DNA of 64,000 nucleotides, from positions 124,001 to 188,000 of the forward strand of contig NZ_PJJN01000032.1 of NCBI RefSeq assembly GCF_002929825.1. Reading direction: 5' to 3'. The notes below the pieces were generated by a model. The model searched no databases, had not been told where the DNA came from, and saw only the letters and a list, made by a program, of their open reading frames with translations. This stretch comes from Cryobacterium sp. Y29 (lineage in GTDB: Bacteria > Actinomycetota > Actinomycetes > Actinomycetales > Microbacteriaceae). A program made the position numbers and the translations under genes. Of the stretch, positions 31,207 through 50,718 are shown one piece after another (the first letter of the stretch is position 1; every line of letters starts with the position of its first letter).

Positions 31207-32511
31207 GTGTCTTACGAACCTGTTCCCACGCAGAAGCTGCCCGTTCCGGCCACACTTGGCCCGGTCGGCAGTCTGTTGGCCGACCGCTTTTCGATCGAGA
31301 GCCTGATCGGCGCAGGCGGGATGGCATCCGTTTACCGAGCGAACGATACCGCGCTCGGACGCACCGTAGCCGTCAAGTTGTTTCGAGCCGATGGAGGCGC
31401 CTCCGACCCCGAACGCCAGAGCGGCGAAATCGCCCTGCTGGCAAGCCTGAATCATTTCGCTCTGGTCACCCTGTTCGACGCCGGCACTGCGATCGTCGAC
31501 GGCGCCCCACGCGCCTATATCGTGATGGAACTCGTCGACGGCCCCGACCTGCGCACCCGCATCGAGAGCGGCCCGCTGCCGAGCCTCGATGTGGCCATAA
31601 TGGGCGCTGACCTTGCCGAAGCGCTGCACTACGTGCACGAGCAGGGCATCATTCATCGCGACGTCAAGCCGGCCAACGTCTTACTGGCGCCGTCGGGTTT
31701 TCCCGGGCGCGGCATGCACGCCAAGCTGGCCGATTTCGGCATTGCCCGGCTCCTCGATGAGACCCGCCTGACGGCGACCGGGTCGTTGCTCGGTACCGCC
31801 AGCTACCTCAGTCCCGAGCAGGCGCTCGGTGGAGTTATCGCTGCGCCAACGGATGTCTATTCGCTCGGCCTGGTGCTGCTGGAATGCCTCACGGGAGTGC
31901 GCGCCTACCCCGGGACCGCCGTGGAATCGGCGATGGCTCGTCTGCAGCGTCAGCCGGAGATTCCTAGCCAGCTCGGCCGCCAGTGGACCGAAGTCCTCCG
32001 TGCCATGACCGCCCGCGATTTCGCCGACCGGCCCACTGCCGCCGATGCCGCCGGGTTGTTGCGTGCGCTAGCCACCGGCAGCAGCAATGCCGATGCGTCC
32101 ACCGCACTGTTGCCTGCGGCGGCGCCCACTGCCACCCTGCTGCTGCCGGCCGCCGTGCCCGACCCCACGTTGTTGCTGCCGGCTGACGCTGACGCTGAGA
32201 CCGAGATTCTGAAGACGGATGCTCCCGCCAGCATCCCTGCGTCCAGCATCCCCGCATCTAGCATCCCCGCATCCAGCATCCCCGCATCCAGCATCCCCGC
32301 GTCCAGCATCCCCGCCAAGCCGCGCCGCCCCGTGCGCCGCCAGGTACTGCTCATGGTCACGAGTGGGCTCACCCTGATCGCCATCGCCGTCGCCGCCCTG
32401 CTCCTGCTCAACCCGGCCGAAGCACCAGTTGCGGTACCACCGAGCTATCCGGCCGTGGACGGCACGCTTGGCACCCACCTTCAGATTCTTCAGGAAAGCG
32501 TGAACCCGTGA
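31207..32511 (+). CDS. Membrane-anchored Ser/Thr protein kinase (PknB-like, no PASTA)
   Basis: 434 residues. The Hanks-type kinase domain is complete: glycine loop GAGGMASVY (35-43), Lys57 in VAVKLF, Glu74, HRDVKPAN (150-157), DFG (176-178), and activation-segment TASYLSPEQ. A low-complexity linker with repeated T.LLLPA units and five tandem PASSI units (about 343-370) leads to one membrane helix (about 380-401) and a 33-residue outer tail. No PASTA or other sensor domain. GTG start behind an AGGAGG site. Translationally coupled (GTGA) to a lipoprotein gene that may supply the sensing part. Confidence 0.93.
   Translation: MSYEPVPTQKLPVPATLGPVGSLLADRFSIESLIGAGGMASVYRANDTALGRTVAVKLFRADGGASDPERQSGEIALLASLNHFALVTLFDAGTAIVDGAPRAYIVMELVDGPDLRTRIESGPLPSLDVAIMGADLAEALHYVHEQGIIHRDVKPANVLLAPSGFPGRGMHAKLADFGIARLLDETRLTATGSLLGTASYLSPEQALGGVIAAPTDVYSLGLVLLECLTGVRAYPGTAVESAMARLQRQPEIPSQLGRQWTEVLRAMTARDFADRPTAADAAGLLRALATGSSNADASTALLPAAAPTATLLLPAAVPDPTLLLPADADAETEILKTDAPASIPASSIPASSIPASSIPASSIPASSIPAKPRRPVRRQVLLMVTSGLTLIAIAVAALLLLNPAEAPVAVPPSYPAVDGTLGTHLQILQESVNP
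32230..32319 (+). repeat. 15-bp tandem repeat inside the kinase gene
   Basis: Five full units and one partial unit of AGCATCCCCGCATCC (single-base variants), in frame, encoding repeated Ser-Ile-Pro-Ala-Ser in the linker before the membrane helix. Change by whole units would alter linker length without a frameshift. Confidence 0.9.
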
Positions 32512-45504: not shown

Positions 45505-48435
45505 CTAGCCCGGCAACATCGCCCTGGTGGCCTCTCCGTCGGAGTGCAAGACCCAGACCCGTCCACGTCCGGGTGCCAGCGGAGGCGGCAGCTCCCGGCG
45601 GTGACTGAGTAGCCGAAAGTCCGACAAGCTGCAGCGGTCGAACACCAGGCTGGCCGCTCGTTCGCTCGAAGTCGAACCACGAAGCCGTGCTAGCAAAGAC
45701 CAGTGCGCCTGCCAGGTTTCGGCGTCACCGACGACAATCAGTTGACCGGCAGCATTCGCTTGGCCCACAGCGCCTGGAACCAGCAGAGCGGATGCCTCTG
45801 GTCCGCTGGTTCCGGCAAGTTCCAGCACCGGAACACCCATAACAGTGCGCAGGCGGGCGGCCGTGCTCGTCGGCGATGATGACACGATCAGAAGCGGACC
45901 TTCAGCCGGTAGCGAATTGGGCACCACGACAGCAGGAACGACCAGGCCCGGAGTCGGCGCCAATAGCTGCACGCGCAGGCTGCGCCACACTCCCCCACCC
46001 GGCGGCAACGACGCGATATAACCGGCCGATTGTCCGCCGGCCGCGAGGTGGTCCTGCACGCTCGGCAGTTTCAGTAGCAGGGTGCTCTGGCACAGAGCTG
46101 CCAGCCCGGGAACGACGCTCGTGTGCCGTTGCACGGCGACTACGACATGCACGCCGGCGGCCGGTCCGTCCCGCAGCAGGCCGACGAGCAGATCCACGGC
46201 TGCCAGCCGGTGGTCGGGCTGCCAGCGGGCGCAGACGGAATCAAAATCGTCGAACAGTACCAACCGGGGTGAAGCCGAAGTCTGCTGCCCGGTTTCCACG
46301 CGGGCACTCAGGCTCGCAAGCGCATCCCAAACAGACTCCATATCGGCTGTGAATAGCTGGGTGGCGACCCGATGTTCGGCTACCCGGGCGAGCGTGTGCA
46401 GCAGGGTGGATTTGCCCGAACCCGCCCCGCCGACCACCAACAAGTGCCCATCACTGTCGGGGTTGTAGGTGAACACGCAGTAGCGCTGGCGCTCGGGTTC
46501 ATCAAGCAACCCGACCGGATACCCCGTCACCGGCGCCTTCCCCACCGTCGCCGCGTCTAGATCGAACTCGGTCACAATCGGCGGCAGCGCATCGAGCCAT
46601 GGACGTCTCGGAACGTATCCGCACGACGCTGACAGAGGCGCCGCTATGATGCTCGCAATGTCGAGTTCGCCCGTTGTAGCGACTTGGCAGAGCACCGGTT
46701 CTCCGTCTTCCGTGGCGACCAAACACCGCCCGGGCTGATTCGGTGCCAGCCCGGCCGCGGCATCCGTGCCGATCACGGCCTGGCTGTCGGCCCGGTTATT
46801 CACCCGCAGCGACACACGCAGGCTGCAATTAGCCAGCAGCGCGTCGCGCACGACCCCGGCCGGCCGTTGGGTACACAGAATCAGGTGCACGCCGAGCGAC
46901 CGCCCCCTGGCGGCAATGTCCACAAAGAGAGCGTGCAGCTCGGGAAACAGCCCGAGCATGGTCGCAAATTCATCGACGACGATGATCAGCCGGGGAAGCG
47001 GATGCTCCAGGCGTACGTCGGTCACGTCTCGCGCTCCGGCCGCGCTCAGCGTGCGCTCCCGGTAACGTAATTCGGCACCGAGACTCGCGAGAGCCCGAGT
47101 GGCTGCGTTCGAGTCGAGGTCGGTAATGAGTCCAACGCAGTGCGGCAGTCGCGCAAGCGGTTGAAAGGCCGCGCCGCCCTTGAAATCAACCAGGAGAAAG
47201 TTCACCTGCCGCGGCGAGAAAGTCGCGGCCAGCGCGGCAACCCAGGTGGTCAGGAGTTCGCTCTTGCCGCTGCCGGTCGTTCCCCCGACCACAGCGTGAG
47301 GTCCGGACTGCACCAGGTCAAGGTACGCCGGCCCGTCACGGCCCACTCCGATCGGGCAGGCGAGGCTCGGTGGTGCCGCCGACCGGTTTAGCGCTGCAGC
47401 ATCGGTGACGTGCTCGAGCAGTTGCATGACCGGAACCATGGCGGGGATCACTCCCGTCGTGCTCACGAGGCCTGCGGACTTGGCCTGCCCGGCGAGTGAC
47501 ACCGCGAAATCGACGGCTTCGGCCCTGGCGAGAAGTTCCGGATAGAAATCCAGAGGCGGCGCACGATTCGGCGAGCGAATAATCTGCGCCCGTGCCGGGC
47601 CAAGCACGCGCACGACCGTTCCGCAGCCCGGCGGCAGGTCGTCGAGCCTCATCGCCACGGCGAGCAGCAGCCGCCCGCTTTCTGGTTCACCACGGCCTGG
47701 ATCGGTGGCGCTGGTGGTGGTGGTGCGCAGTAGGAGTGTGAACCGGCGCGGCGATGGCGCCACGTGCGGCAGCTGAACCACCCAGTCCCAATCGGTGGAC
47801 ATGGCATCGCTCGGGCCGGCGACACTCAAATCGGTCGGCGGCACCGCAAAACAGACCTGCACACACACGGCGCGACCGAGGGCTGCCGCGAGCGGCATCG
47901 GCCCGACGATGCCGAGCCCCTGGGCCAGGTCGACGACGATGGGGGCACCGGTGACTGTTGCGGCCCACTCCCGCAGTTGCCGGTTATCGTTCGGTGCGCT
48001 CGCTCCGCCGAGTCGGATACCGCTCGGGGCCGAGCCCACGCCCAGCGAGACGAGCGTGCCATCCGTTTGTCGCCAACGCGCGGCCGCCGCACGCCCGAGC
48101 ACAATATTTCTCGCCGAAGGCGTGTGCCGCCAGGCTTCGTCGCGCCAGCGGGTATGACGTTCGGTGATCATCGAACAGAGCACCGTCACAGCCTCGCTGT
48201 GCGAGGCCGTCTCGGCCCGGCGGCGTTTGCGGCCGGAACGTTTCGAGTCGAACATGCTGGCTACCGCGATGATCGGGCTGAGAACGGCGAAAATCAATGC
48301 GAAGGCCGAGCCGGTGATCAGCCAGATCAATCCGGCGGCGACCAGGGGTGCCACTGTGGCGAGTAGGGGAAACCCTGCCGGCGGCAGAGCGGCCGGCGCG
48401 GGCGGCAGAGCGAGGGTTTCATCGACGGTGGACAC
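45505..48435 (-). CDS. EccC/EssC-like FtsK-SpoIIIE ATPase
   Basis: 976 residues. Two N-terminal membrane helices (about 22-60), a basic stretch (64-73), an unassigned region (about 80-360), and two FtsK/SpoIIIE ATPase modules. Module 1: Walker A GTTGSGKS (385-392), LLVDFKGGAAF, Walker B IIVVDEF (484-490), CTQRP sensor. Module 2: Walker A GGAGSGKS (669-676), Walker B LVLFDDFD (725-732). This is the arrangement of type VII secretion motors (EccC/EssC), with two ATPase modules instead of the three in typical EccC. No WXG100 substrate, EccB, EccD or EccE gene is in the window. GTG start. Follows FHA and PP2C genes on the same strand. Confidence 0.88.
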   Translation of the reverse strand: MSTVDETLALPPAPAALPPAGFPLLATVAPLVAAGLIWLITGSAFALIFAVLSPIIAVASMFDSKRSGRKRRRAETASHSEAVTVLCSMITERHTRWRDEAWRHTPSARNIVLGRAAAARWRQTDGTLVSLGVGSAPSGIRLGGASAPNDNRQLREWAATVTGAPIVVDLAQGLGIVGPMPLAAALGRAVCVQVCFAVPPTDLSVAGPSDAMSTDWDWVVQLPHVAPSPRRFTLLLRTTTTSATDPGRGEPESGRLLLAVAMRLDDLPPGCGTVVRVLGPARAQIIRSPNRAPPLDFYPELLARAEAVDFAVSLAGQAKSAGLVSTTGVIPAMVPVMQLLEHVTDAAALNRSAAPPSLACPIGVGRDGPAYLDLVQSGPHAVVGGTTGSGKSELLTTWVAALAATFSPRQVNFLLVDFKGGAAFQPLARLPHCVGLITDLDSNAATRALASLGAELRYRERTLSAAGARDVTDVRLEHPLPRLIIVVDEFATMLGLFPELHALFVDIAARGRSLGVHLILCTQRPAGVVRDALLANCSLRVSLRVNNRADSQAVIGTDAAAGLAPNQPGRCLVATEDGEPVLCQVATTGELDIASIIAAPLSASCGYVPRRPWLDALPPIVTEFDLDAATVGKAPVTGYPVGLLDEPERQRYCVFTYNPDSDGHLLVVGGAGSGKSTLLHTLARVAEHRVATQLFTADMESVWDALASLSARVETGQQTSASPRLVLFDDFDSVCARWQPDHRLAAVDLLVGLLRDGPAAGVHVVVAVQRHTSVVPGLAALCQSTLLLKLPSVQDHLAAGGQSAGYIASLPPGGGVWRSLRVQLLAPTPGLVVPAVVVPNSLPAEGPLLIVSSSPTSTAARLRTVMGVPVLELAGTSGPEASALLVPGAVGQANAAGQLIVVGDAETWQAHWSLLARLRGSTSSERAASLVFDRCSLSDFRLLSHRRELPPPLAPGRGRVWVLHSDGEATRAMLPG

Positions 48436-48526
48436 CCAGCCAGCAGATCAGATTATCGGTCGAGGAACACTCGTGACGTGAGGATCGGTGCACAATCAGC
48501 GTTCCAGTGGGCGGTGGAGGACGTCC

Positions 48527-49123
48527 TCACGCGACGCTGAACGAGTGGTCGGCGATTTCGACCCGGGCACCGCGCGGCAGAACGTACCGTCGGCCCGGTT
48601 CGAGTGCCTCGGCCGTTTCGCCCGGGCGGCGAATCACAGTACCGTTACCCGAGACTCGGTCGCTGACCCAGAACTCGTCGTCATGCTGGCCGAACTCGAG
48701 GTGAGTCTTCGAGACCGAGCGGTCGGCATCCGCTACCCGAATGAGGTCATCAAAAATCTCGTCGGGTTGGGCCAGGGGTTTGCGCCCGATCAGGCCGGAG
48801 CCTCGCACGGAGACCACCTGACCGGTGCTGAAGGTCAACACGAAGGTCGCCCGGGTCGGCAGCACGGCGGCGGGGAGTGCGGGCGGTGCTGCGGCTGGCG
48901 CGGCGGTCACGACAGCGATGGCCCGCACTGGCGCCGGCACCTCCGCGGGAATCGGTACCGAGATGACGACGGTGGTGCGCGGCAGGCGCGCAATGATCGT
49001 CGTGTCGTTGGGACGAGGGTCCGGGCGCTGGCGCGACTCCACGGTAGCGGTGCGAGAGCTGCCGCATTCGCCACAGAACATGGCCAAGGCCGGCAACCAT
49101 GCCCCGCAAATCTGACACGTCAC
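48527..49123 (-). CDS. Zinc-ribbon and FHA-domain protein
   Basis: 198 residues. The N terminus carries a C-x2-C ... C-x2-C zinc ribbon (CQICG, CGECG). A Pro/Ala-rich linker (about 35-90) and a C-terminal forkhead-associated domain follow. FHA hallmarks: GLIGRKP, DRSVSKTHLEF and VSGNGTVIRR, so the phosphothreonine-contacting Arg, Ser, His and Asn are present. Binds phosphothreonine peptides; partners could be substrates of the kinase at 31207 or the EccC-like protein encoded 91 bases downstream. GTG start, 12 bases after yjdM. Confidence 0.9.
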   Translation of the reverse strand: MTCQICGAWLPALAMFCGECGSSRTATVESRQRPDPRPNDTTIIARLPRTTVVISVPIPAEVPAPVRAIAVVTAAPAAAPPALPAAVLPTRATFVLTFSTGQVVSVRGSGLIGRKPLAQPDEIFDDLIRVADADRSVSKTHLEFGQHDDEFWVSDRVSGNGTVIRRPGETAEALEPGRRYVLPRGARVEIADHSFSVA

Positions 49124-49135
49124 GATCGGCCGGGC

Positions 49136-49480
49136 CTAGACCTTTTTGACCAGACTGGACTTGAGCTGAATGAATCCAAAACCATCGACCTTGCAGTCGA
49201 TGTCATGGCCGTCGACCGGATCGACGACGCGAATATTGCGAACCTTGGTGCCGACCTTGATCGACAACGCCTGGCCCTTGACCTTGAGGTCCTTGATGAT
49301 CGAGACGGTGTCCCCGTCGGTCAAAACGGTTCCGAAGGCGTCTTTGACCTGGACTTCCTGATCTTCTTCGACCGGTTCGTTCGACCATTCGTGGGCGCAG
49401 AGCGGGCACACCAGCAAGGAACCCATCTCGTAGGCCAGGTCACTGGAACATTCAGGGCACGGGGGCAGGGTCTCGTTCAC
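49136..49480 (-). CDS. yjdM: YjdM/PhnA-family zinc-ribbon protein
   Basis: 114 residues. Small protein with an N-terminal zinc ribbon (LPPCPECSSDLAYEMG and VCPLCAHEW) and the C-terminal VKVGTKVRNIRVVDPVDGHDI-type domain. The name PhnA is historical; a direct role in phosphonate use is not established. GTG at 49480 is chosen because TATTGT stands 7 bases before it; a GTG three codons upstream is the alternative. Having its own promoter inside this cluster suggests it is not simply part of the PP2C-FHA unit. Confidence 0.88.
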   Translation of the reverse strand: MNETLPPCPECSSDLAYEMGSLLVCPLCAHEWSNEPVEEDQEVQVKDAFGTVLTDGDTVSIIKDLKVKGQALSIKVGTKVRNIRVVDPVDGHDIDCKVDGFGFIQLKSSLVKKV

Positions 49481-49487
49481 TCGATCC

Positions 49488-49493
49488 ACAATA
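49488..49493 (-). promoter_or_regulatory. Predicted leaderless -10 box of yjdM
   Basis: TATTGT, then 7 bases, then GTG at 49480. Confidence 0.55.
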
Positions 49494-49521
49494 CGCGACT
49501 GGACTCGCCGACACGGGCGTG

Positions 49522-49755
49522 CTAGCGGCGGCGGGTCAACACGCGCCAGAGCCGGCCGGCAATGATGGCCGCGATGACCACGACCATCAGCGGAATGTAG
49601 GCGATGAAAGAGGATGCTTCCCAGCCGATCCCGATTCCGGAATCACGGTTGAAAGCCGATACCGACAGTTCGAGAAAGTATGACGCGGCCGACTCTGTTC
49701 CGCTGTCCATTGGGGCTGACAACATGCCAGCGGTGAAGGCGAAGGCGAGGGCCAC
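49522..49755 (-). CDS. Hypothetical small membrane protein
   Basis: Up to 77 residues from GTG (an internal ATG at residue 11 would give 67). The C-terminal half has one clear membrane helix (about 50-68) followed by a basic end (WRVLTRRR), and its codons are G/C-rich at the third position as in real genes here. The N-terminal part is weakly hydrophobic. No ribosome site or -10 box is evident. It may be a real small protein in the PP2C-FHA cluster or a chance frame. Confidence 0.45.
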   Translation of the reverse strand: MALAFAFTAGMLSAPMDSGTESAASYFLELSVSAFNRDSGIGIGWEASSFIAYIPLMVVVIAAIIAGRLWRVLTRRR

Positions 49756-49810
49756 CGCGCCGTCGTCGGTGATACCTAATAGCTGTGAGTACTAGCCACT
49801 ACGGGCCAGG

Positions 49811-50614
49811 TCAGGTGTTGGGCGCCTCGTATGGTTCGACGGCGAGCACATCGACCACGATTACGGTGACGTTGTCGCGACCACCGTTTTCCAGGGCGGC
49901 TGTGACCATCGCTGCGACGGCATCCGCTGCGAGCTTCTGTTCAAGCAGAAAATGACGGATTCCGTAGGAGGTGAGTTCTTTGGTGAGCCCGTCGGAACAG
50001 ATCAGGATGCGCATACCGGCCTGGATCGGCAGGATGCGATAGTCGGGAATCGGCGGTTCGTGAAAGCCGACGGCGCGAGTAATGATGTTGCCGTGCGGGT
50101 GGACGTCCGCCTCTTCGCGGGTGATGCGACCGGCGTCGACGAGTTCCTGCACGACCGAATGGTCATTGGTGACCTGCTCGAGGACACCGCCGGTCAGCTG
50201 GTAGACCCGGGAATCGCCGATGTTATAGACGATCCAGCTGACGGCGTCCGAGACGAGTGCCAGCGCCACGCCGGTCACAGTCGTTCCGGTGCCTTGGTCG
50301 GTGACGCCGACACCCTGCGCCATGTCCTCCACGGCGAGAGCGAGCGCCCGATCGATCGAACCGGCCTCCGCCACGAGTGTTCCGGAAAGCTCGGCAAGCC
50401 TGGTCACCACGGCGGCACTTGCGACATCGCCCGCTGAGTGGCCGCCCATGCCGTCGGCGACGGCGAACAGGGGCGGCGCGGCGAGGAGGCTGTCCTCGTT
50501 GACCTCGCGGCGATGGCCGACATCGGTCAGGCCTGCCCACGCCAGCGTCAGCGTCGTGCCAATGCTGGGCAGTTCGACGCGAAATTCGGTCGAACCTTGA
50601 CCAATCTGGGTCAC
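49811..50614 (-). CDS. PP2C-family Ser/Thr protein phosphatase
   Basis: 267 residues. Metal-dependent phosphatase with all motifs: TDVGHRREVNEDS, FAVADGMGGHSAGD, NIGDSRVYQL, CSDGLTKEL and GGRDNVTVIVV. The metal-binding aspartates are present. No membrane segment, so cytoplasmic. The GTG at 50614 has GGAAGG 8 bases upstream and fits the family's usual start. First gene of the PP2C - small membrane protein - YjdM - FHA - EccC-like series. Probable counterpart of the Ser/Thr kinase at 31207, which is not adjacent. Confidence 0.92.
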   Translation of the reverse strand: MTQIGQGSTEFRVELPSIGTTLTLAWAGLTDVGHRREVNEDSLLAAPPLFAVADGMGGHSAGDVASAAVVTRLAELSGTLVAEAGSIDRALALAVEDMAQGVGVTDQGTGTTVTGVALALVSDAVSWIVYNIGDSRVYQLTGGVLEQVTNDHSVVQELVDAGRITREEADVHPHGNIITRAVGFHEPPIPDYRILPIQAGMRILICSDGLTKELTSYGIRHFLLEQKLAADAVAAMVTAALENGGRDNVTVIVVDVLAVEPYEAPNT

Positions 50615-50718
50615 GGGTGGTGCCTTCCGAGTGTGGGTACGAATTCGTCCCCGCCGTTCCAACGTTCACCGAAGGACTTGAATCATAATAACGTCACCGC
50701 TCACGGCCATTGCACCGG

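What the first reader, a model, noticed from the sequence alone, without database searches (positions are those of the whole stretch)
45505..50614. Orphan EccC-like double ATPase grouped with FHA/zinc-ribbon protein, PP2C phosphatase, YjdM and a small membrane protein
The 976-residue protein has the membrane anchor and tandem FtsK modules of type VII secretion motors, but neither WXG100 substrates nor other Ecc genes are in the window. Upstream on the same strand are a PP2C phosphatase and an FHA phosphothreonine reader. This suggests a phosphorylation-controlled translocase lacking classical partners, either a minimal secretion device or a motor with another cargo. The role of the group is inference.
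Basis: partly seen in the sequence, partly recalled or inferred. Interest (0 to 1): 0.6.

Follow-up and report, generated by a model that had tools for sequence, protein, structure and literature searches.

The report
Secretion motor without its usual partners
A Cryobacterium genome carries a membrane motor related to the type VII secretion ATPase, next to a phosphatase and a phospho-reading protein; relatives show it is what is left of a conserved cluster of about eight genes that lacks the WXG100 proteins such motors normally go with, so what it moves is unknown.

Summary
The observation mostly holds: an intact 976-residue EccC-like protein, an FHA/zinc-ribbon protein, YjdM and a PP2C phosphatase lie on the minus strand of a Cryobacterium contig. 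The 77-residue "membrane protein" is doubtful; YjdM is incidental (4 of 56 loci, all Cryobacterium). The motor belongs to one clade (47 of 47 short rows, SH-aLRT 99), all from Microbacteriaceae. In 27 of 40 relatives a transglutaminase block (Ig/FN3 giant, MoxR, DUF58, transglutaminase) precedes it; 9 of 9 loci read further upstream add a Ser/Thr kinase and PP2C. This resembles Bifidobacterium's PFNA operon plus a motor. In Cryobacterium the middle is missing. A separate locus (contig C20) keeps kinase to phosphatase but lacks EssC and WXG100. The motor keeps D1 and D2 P-loops, has a shrunken third module without one, and no fused FHA. No WXG100 was found near 57 short-motor loci, against 44 of 73 other motor loci. 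Purifying selection (dN/dS 0.16-0.25) argues against decay. Best reading: a phosphorylation-gated translocase derived from a type VII motor, with non-WXG100 cargo. Origin is well supported; cargo and gating are inference. New variant of a known kind.

The parts
45505..48435 (-). Short EccC-like membrane motor, 976 aa: N-terminal hydrophobic region/2 TM helices (about 21-64), stalk/DUF region, D1 ATPase (P-loop GTTGSGKS at about 385, Walker B VVDEF), D2 ATPase (P-loop GGAGSGKS at about 669), reduced third module (about 848-976) without P-loop
48527..49123 (-). Zinc-ribbon FHA protein, 198 aa; phosphothreonine-site residues G-R, S-x-x-H, N-G present (motif recalled)
49811..50662 (-). PP2C-type Ser/Thr phosphatase, 283 aa from TTG (alternative start 50614)
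49136..49489 (-). YjdM (PhnA-like) protein, 117 aa; only in Cryobacterium loci, judged incidental
49522..49755 (-).

Best explanation
The group is the reduced form of a Microbacteriaceae cluster (PP2C, Ser/Thr kinase, giant Ig/FN3 protein, MoxR, DUF58, transglutaminase, zinc-ribbon FHA, short EccC). The short EccC most simply descends from a type VII (EssC-type) motor; its likely closest relatives, with fused FHA and three ATPase modules, often sit in loci with the same partner genes. In the short form the FHA is a separate protein, the third ATPase module has no P-loop and is shrunken, and no WXG100 gene lies nearby (shown by sequence). Proposed mechanism (inference): a membrane hexamer powered by D1 moves a non-WXG100 polypeptide; a Ser/Thr kinase phosphorylates the motor or a partner, the FHA protein binds the phosphothreonine and switches or docks the motor, and PP2C resets it. 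In Cryobacterium the kinase would be one encoded elsewhere (C20 locus or window 31207-32511).
For: Synteny: 27 of 40 fetched relatives carry the transglutaminase beside the motor; 9 of 9 with more upstream sequence read also have PP2C and kinase before FN3. Tree: 47 of 47 short rows form one clade (99); it joins a clade of 22 EssC rows (99), 13 of which have a transglutaminase match in their locus against 0 of the 71 remaining long rows (the joining branch itself is weak, 76). WXG100: none in 57 short-motor loci, present in 44 of 73 other motor loci. Fold: T. curvata EccC Z 35.8 over 608 residues; ESX-5 EccC Z 19.7 over model 1-319. D2 profile match E 1e-40. D1 P-loop in 47 of 48 short motors by pattern and the 48th by eye; no third P-loop in any. 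FHA core in 30 of 31. dN/dS 0.16-0.25 motor, 0.06-0.10 PP2C.
Against: No cargo, kinase target or activity is shown. In 4 of 24 loci without the transglutaminase the motor has neither PP2C nor FHA in the stretch read (L074, L076, L255, L259), so phospho-gating cannot be general unless supplied in trans. The D2 P-loop is canonical in only 26 of 47 short motors assessed, so D2 is not a general engine. The branch joining the EssC clade is weak (76). Third-module homology is weak (E 9.5e-5, probability 59). The WXG100 contrast mixes families and flank lengths. Other T7SS pore parts (EssB, EsaA, EccD, EccE) were not searched for.
Confidence: 0.5

Rival explanations
1. Split type VII system: the motor serves the C20 locus (kinase, Ig/FN3, MoxR, DUF58, transglutaminase, FHA, PP2C), which lacks EssC and WXG100, and exports the solo WXG100 of contig C36.
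For: C20 locus has these genes without EssC/WXG100; the genome has one EccC-type motor and one WXG100; 13 of 13 reduced genomes of my first set keep a TGase and a DUF58 match elsewhere.
Against: G141 has the short motor and also an intact EssC with WXG100 in its own locus. Four genomes at least 99% complete (G016, G097, G100, G116) keep the short motor with only weak DUF58 matches, E 8e-28 to 3e-12. WXG100 occurs in 145 of 150 genomes, including six whose best motor match is no better than 6e-25 (two of them incomplete).
Confidence: 0.15
2. Signalling scaffold: the ATPase no longer moves cargo but senses envelope state within a kinase/FHA/PP2C circuit.
For: PP2C is the commonest companion when the transglutaminase block is absent (19 of 24 loci); third module reduced and D2 P-loop often degenerate.
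Against: D1 Walker residues are invariant in 19 of 19 aligned motors, as expected for a working engine.
Confidence: 0.2
3. Decaying remnant without function.
For: The cluster is reduced in several branches; YjdM fills the gap here.
Against: dN/dS 0.16-0.25 in six pairs of four Cryobacterium genomes, open frames in all four; in 4 of 24 loci without the transglutaminase the motor is still there although PP2C and FHA are not.
Confidence: 0.08
4. DNA translocase of the FtsK/TcpA kind.
For: D1 resembles FtsK (Z 29.9, 278 residues).
Against: Best match over most of the chain is EccC (Z 35.8, 608 residues); the N-terminal third matches ESX-5/ESX-3 EccC; EssC profile far outscores FtsK's (295 vs 44 bits).
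Confidence: 0.05

Closest known systems
T7SSd (Garrett, Higginson, Palmer 2024, PMC11217815; abstract, sections 5, 9, 16 and found passages read)
   Same: Actinomycetota; EssC-type motor with a Ser/Thr kinase and a giant Ig-like protein (TsdI); phosphothreonine/FHA theme
   Different: T7SSd has WXG100 TsdA and FHA domains on the ATPase; here neither, FHA is separate, and MoxR/DUF58/transglutaminase/PP2C are added in the full cluster. That paper's main text has 0 occurrences of transglutaminase and MoxR
PFNA operon of Bifidobacterium (PMC8430577, PMC6803598; found passages read only)
   Same: kinase pkb2, fn3, MoxR-type AAA ATPase, duf58, transglutaminase, with prpC phosphatase and fha in some species
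   Different: FtsK and type VII have 0 occurrences in either main text; in Microbacteriaceae the cluster ends in the motor. Homology of the single genes to the Bifidobacterium ones was not tested by sequence
T7SSa EccC and T7SSb EssC (PDB 4nh0, 7b9f, 4lya)
   Same: N-terminal membrane part, stalk/DUF, FtsK-type ATPase modules
   Different: only two P-loops, third module reduced, no WXG100 nearby

Membership tests
Type VII secretion system (any subtype) | EccC/EssC membrane ATPase | tested here: met
   but below NCBIfam equivalog cut-offs
Type VII secretion system (any subtype) | WXG100 (TsxA) encoded with the motor | tested here: not met
   0 of 57 short-motor loci; one WXG100 elsewhere in the genome
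Type VII secretion system (any subtype) | third C-terminal ATPase module with P-loop | tested here: not met
   no third P-loop in 0 of 48 short motors by pattern, against three in 18 of 22 long ones; module reduced
Type VII secretion system (any subtype) | protein export by the motor | not testable with these tools
   needs experiment
T7SSa | EccB in the genome | tested here: inconclusive
   no match, but no control genome rang either
T7SSd | N-terminal FHA on the ATPase | tested here: not met
   no FHA match in the motor; it begins with the membrane part; FHA is a separate gene
T7SSd | TsdH (single-TM protein) | not tested
   no sequence searched
PFNA operon | pkb2-fn3-aaa-duf58-tgm at the locus | tested here: not met
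   absent beside the window motor; a like-ordered set is on C20 and beside the motor in 27 of 40 relatives, judged by transglutaminase

The most novel reading that the evidence does not exclude
Microbacteriaceae hold a separate kind of type VII-derived translocase that works without any WXG100 protein: the motor lost the third ATPase site, has its FHA gate on a separate zinc-ribbon protein, exports another class of cargo under kinase/PP2C control, and can function when all other cluster genes are gone.
Probability: 0.33. Interest if true: 0.75.

Novelty: new variant of a known kind. Interest (0 to 1): 0.5.

Why it matters
WXG100 proteins are held to be near-universal and essential for type VII systems (PMC11217815). 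A conserved motor clade without them nearby, with a short-type hit in 94 of 150 sampled genomes of the family (hand count, my cut-off), would let one ask which parts of the machine are needed for export itself, and would link the Bifidobacterium PFNA operon, described as a host-communication operon, to secretion motors.

Tried and rejected
Rejected: the five genes as a unit (YjdM in 4 of 56 loci; small ORF unconserved). Rejected: duplicate of a complete T7SS in the same genome. 'No third module' was my first reading; the model and hhalign suggest a reduced one. Solo WXG100 as a dedicated partner: the same histidine kinase lies beside WXG100 in 8 of 30 sampled WXG100 loci (best-scoring, about 3 kb each), and WXG100 occurs in genomes without a good motor match; it is not excluded.

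Co-occurrence: short motor with DUF58 match at E < 1e-60, 89 of 94 against 37 of 56, Fisher p 1e-5, hand-tallied and driven partly by small genomes; of the five exceptions G146 is a contig-end case (L256 holds TGase and a DUF58 fragment), leaving G016, G097, G100, G116. The short/long split (E <= 2e-77) is my cut-off; G056 with E 3e-63 and a 1114-aa frame may be a further short one.

Sets: the 40 neighbourhoods were chosen by me from the 94 (93 without the window's own). The 56 loci are the window, those 40, 7 and 8 of 10 (L256 and the repeat L258 left out); several were picked because they lack the block, so 32 with and 24 without is not a frequency (L044 is cut by its contig end). Of 143 loci with a motor ORF, three were left out of the tree: L165 and L228 for not matching my P-loop pattern (L165 has GVTGSGKS, intact by eye) and L200 for a score under 250. 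Loss rather than gain of the middle block is inferred from shared flanks and scatter in the tree, not reconstructed.

WXG100 models: the first had three sequences, the second 15 (14 from 30 loci plus the window genome's own). The 73 control loci are not all long motors (L175, L192, L224, L228, L241 are 640-1044 aa) and many are Bacillota. Failed or useless: the gene picker missed the WXG100 ORF and some overlapping genes; the first FHA expression was wrong (corrected); EccB search without a ringing control. Not run: second structure job, promoter scan. Names such as rpoC, pilus, whiB, PdtaS, spermidine/putrescine transporter are read by eye. Literature: I saw listings only and no title on a WXG100-less EccC of Microbacteriaceae; open-access library, top 10-15 rows of up to 92.
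Full report
What is there. The window lies at G000:C22:124001-188000, a 3.66 Mb genome of 37 contigs. The nearest named relative of the motor is from Cryobacterium suzukii, 89% identical, and window, C. suzukii and two same-genus genomes form one clade (support 100), so the organism is most likely a Cryobacterium (Microbacteriaceae). On the minus strand lie PP2C (49811-50662), a doubtful 77-aa ORF, YjdM, a zinc-ribbon FHA protein and a 976-aa motor. Downstream is a spermidine/putrescine-type ABC transporter set, upstream an aldehyde dehydrogenase-like gene (by eye).

The motor. Pfam FtsK_SpoIIIE covers residues 362-526; EssC and EccC profiles match at 295 and 237 bits, below cut-offs. Against PDB sequences the profile's best hit is T. 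curvata EccC (E 1e-98). The AlphaFold model (pLDDT 82.8, pTM 0.59, 27 sequences) aligns with that EccC over 608 residues (Z 35.8, rmsd 6.5) and its N-terminal third with ESX-5 EccC (Z 19.7). Of 22 long relatives 18 show three P-loops by pattern; none of 48 short motors shows a third, and the window protein has two. D2's P-loop is canonical in 26 of 47 short motors assessed, the window's among them. The second module is D2 (E 1e-40); the last 150 residues weakly resemble the end of D3 (E 9.5e-5, probability 59) and hold no P-loop. In PDB 4n1a a signal peptide is bound to an EccC ATPase 2-3 fragment (title); that the reduced module cannot bind WXG100 signals is inference.

The cluster. I read 40 neighbourhoods out of 94 genomes with a short-type hit among 150 family genomes. 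In 27 of 40 a transglutaminase stands beside the motor, as a rule in the order FN3/Ig giant, MoxR, DUF58, transglutaminase, zinc-ribbon FHA (some cut by the stretch; L070 has no FHA match). Of the other 13, L044 is cut by its contig end. Nine of nine loci read further upstream show PP2C and kinase before the giant protein, six of them with DUF4192- or ALDH-like flanks as in the window. Across 56 loci, 32 have the transglutaminase and 24 do not; of the 24, 19 have PP2C, 8 the FHA, 4 YjdM, and 4 neither PP2C nor FHA. So the window's arrangement is most simply this cluster with its middle lost. In G086 and G033 a close copy of the middle sits elsewhere in the genome.

The second locus. On C20 (about 191400-205820) the window's genome has PP2C, FHA, transglutaminase, DUF58, MoxR, a 2035-aa Ig/FN3-type protein and a kinase. 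In G141 the same order continues with WXG100 and an EssC before rpoC. In the window's genome pilus-type genes lie between kinase and rpoC instead (the last kilobase was not read). In G078 no WXG100 or EccC match was found in the 19.9 kb between block and rpoC, and a disrupted EssC with a WXG100 match lies on another contig. So of three same-genus genomes one keeps the classical motor, while all three keep the short one. FtsK and the window protein are the only proteins over the FtsK_SpoIIIE cut-off in this genome.

WXG100. A model of 15 sequences finds none in the window and 40 loci of the first set, in L162-L168, or in nine further short-motor loci, that is 0 of 57, against 44 of 73 other motor loci as positive control. 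The control loci are of mixed families and have longer flanks. The genome's single WXG100 gene lies on C36 after a histidine-kinase-like gene.

Ancestry. In a tree of 140 D1 segments all 47 short rows form one clade (99). It joins, weakly (76), a clade of 22 EssC rows (99). Of those 22, 13 have a transglutaminase match in their locus; of the 71 remaining rows none has. Shared neighbours thus support the joining better than the branch does. A further group, mostly FHA-fused motors with three P-loops, is spread over other families; four of the 20 loci (L120, L137, L138, L139) have a WXG100 match.

Selection. dN/dS in six pairs of four Cryobacterium genomes is 0.16-0.25 for the motor, 0.10-0.17 for FHA, 0.06-0.10 for PP2C. 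The FHA phosphothreonine core is present in 30 of 31 proteins scoring over 190 bits.

Function. Shown: arrangement, architecture, constraint, absence of WXG100 nearby. Inferred: translocation, gating by phosphothreonine, cargo. Since four genomes at least 99% complete (G016, G097, G100, G116) keep the motor with only weak DUF58 matches, three of them with PP2C beside it and one without, the motor can apparently act without the middle block.

Known kinds. It looks like a type VII motor but fails two features (WXG100 neighbour, third P-loop). Garrett et al. 2024 describe T7SSc-j with kinases, phosphatases and FHA proteins and note that no clear esxA was found in T7SSi. The PFNA papers do not mention an FtsK-type gene. 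I therefore call it a new variant of a known kind.

Noticed in passing
L147 8845-17001 and L146 1-10326 (G000 C20): Type IV pilus-like gene sets (by eye) lie on both sides of the C20 locus; one occupies the place where G141 has WXG100 and EssC.
   Followed up: partly
L151 10528-13205 (G078 C16): Disrupted EssC and a WXG100 match in a same-genus genome.
   Followed up: partly
L007 11641-14510 (G000 C36): WXG100 gene directly after a response regulator/histidine kinase pair; that kinase is beside WXG100 in 8 of 30 sampled family loci, function unknown.
   Followed up: partly
L123, L124, L135, L136: EssC-like motors of other families with FHA-like N-termini beside whiB-like and PdtaS-like genes (names by eye); no WXG100 match in these loci.
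   Followed up: no
L238 6302-15112: 2936-aa EccC-like ORF in an uncultured bacterium, high-scoring (875 bits).
   Followed up: no
window 31207-32511 (+): Ser/Thr kinase-like protein (434 aa, one hydrophobic stretch) about 13 kb from the group; possible kinase for it.
   Followed up: no
L224, L241: Bifidobacterium 640-690 aa FtsK-type proteins on a long branch in the motor tree; none of my PFNA-type models matched nearby.
   Followed up: no
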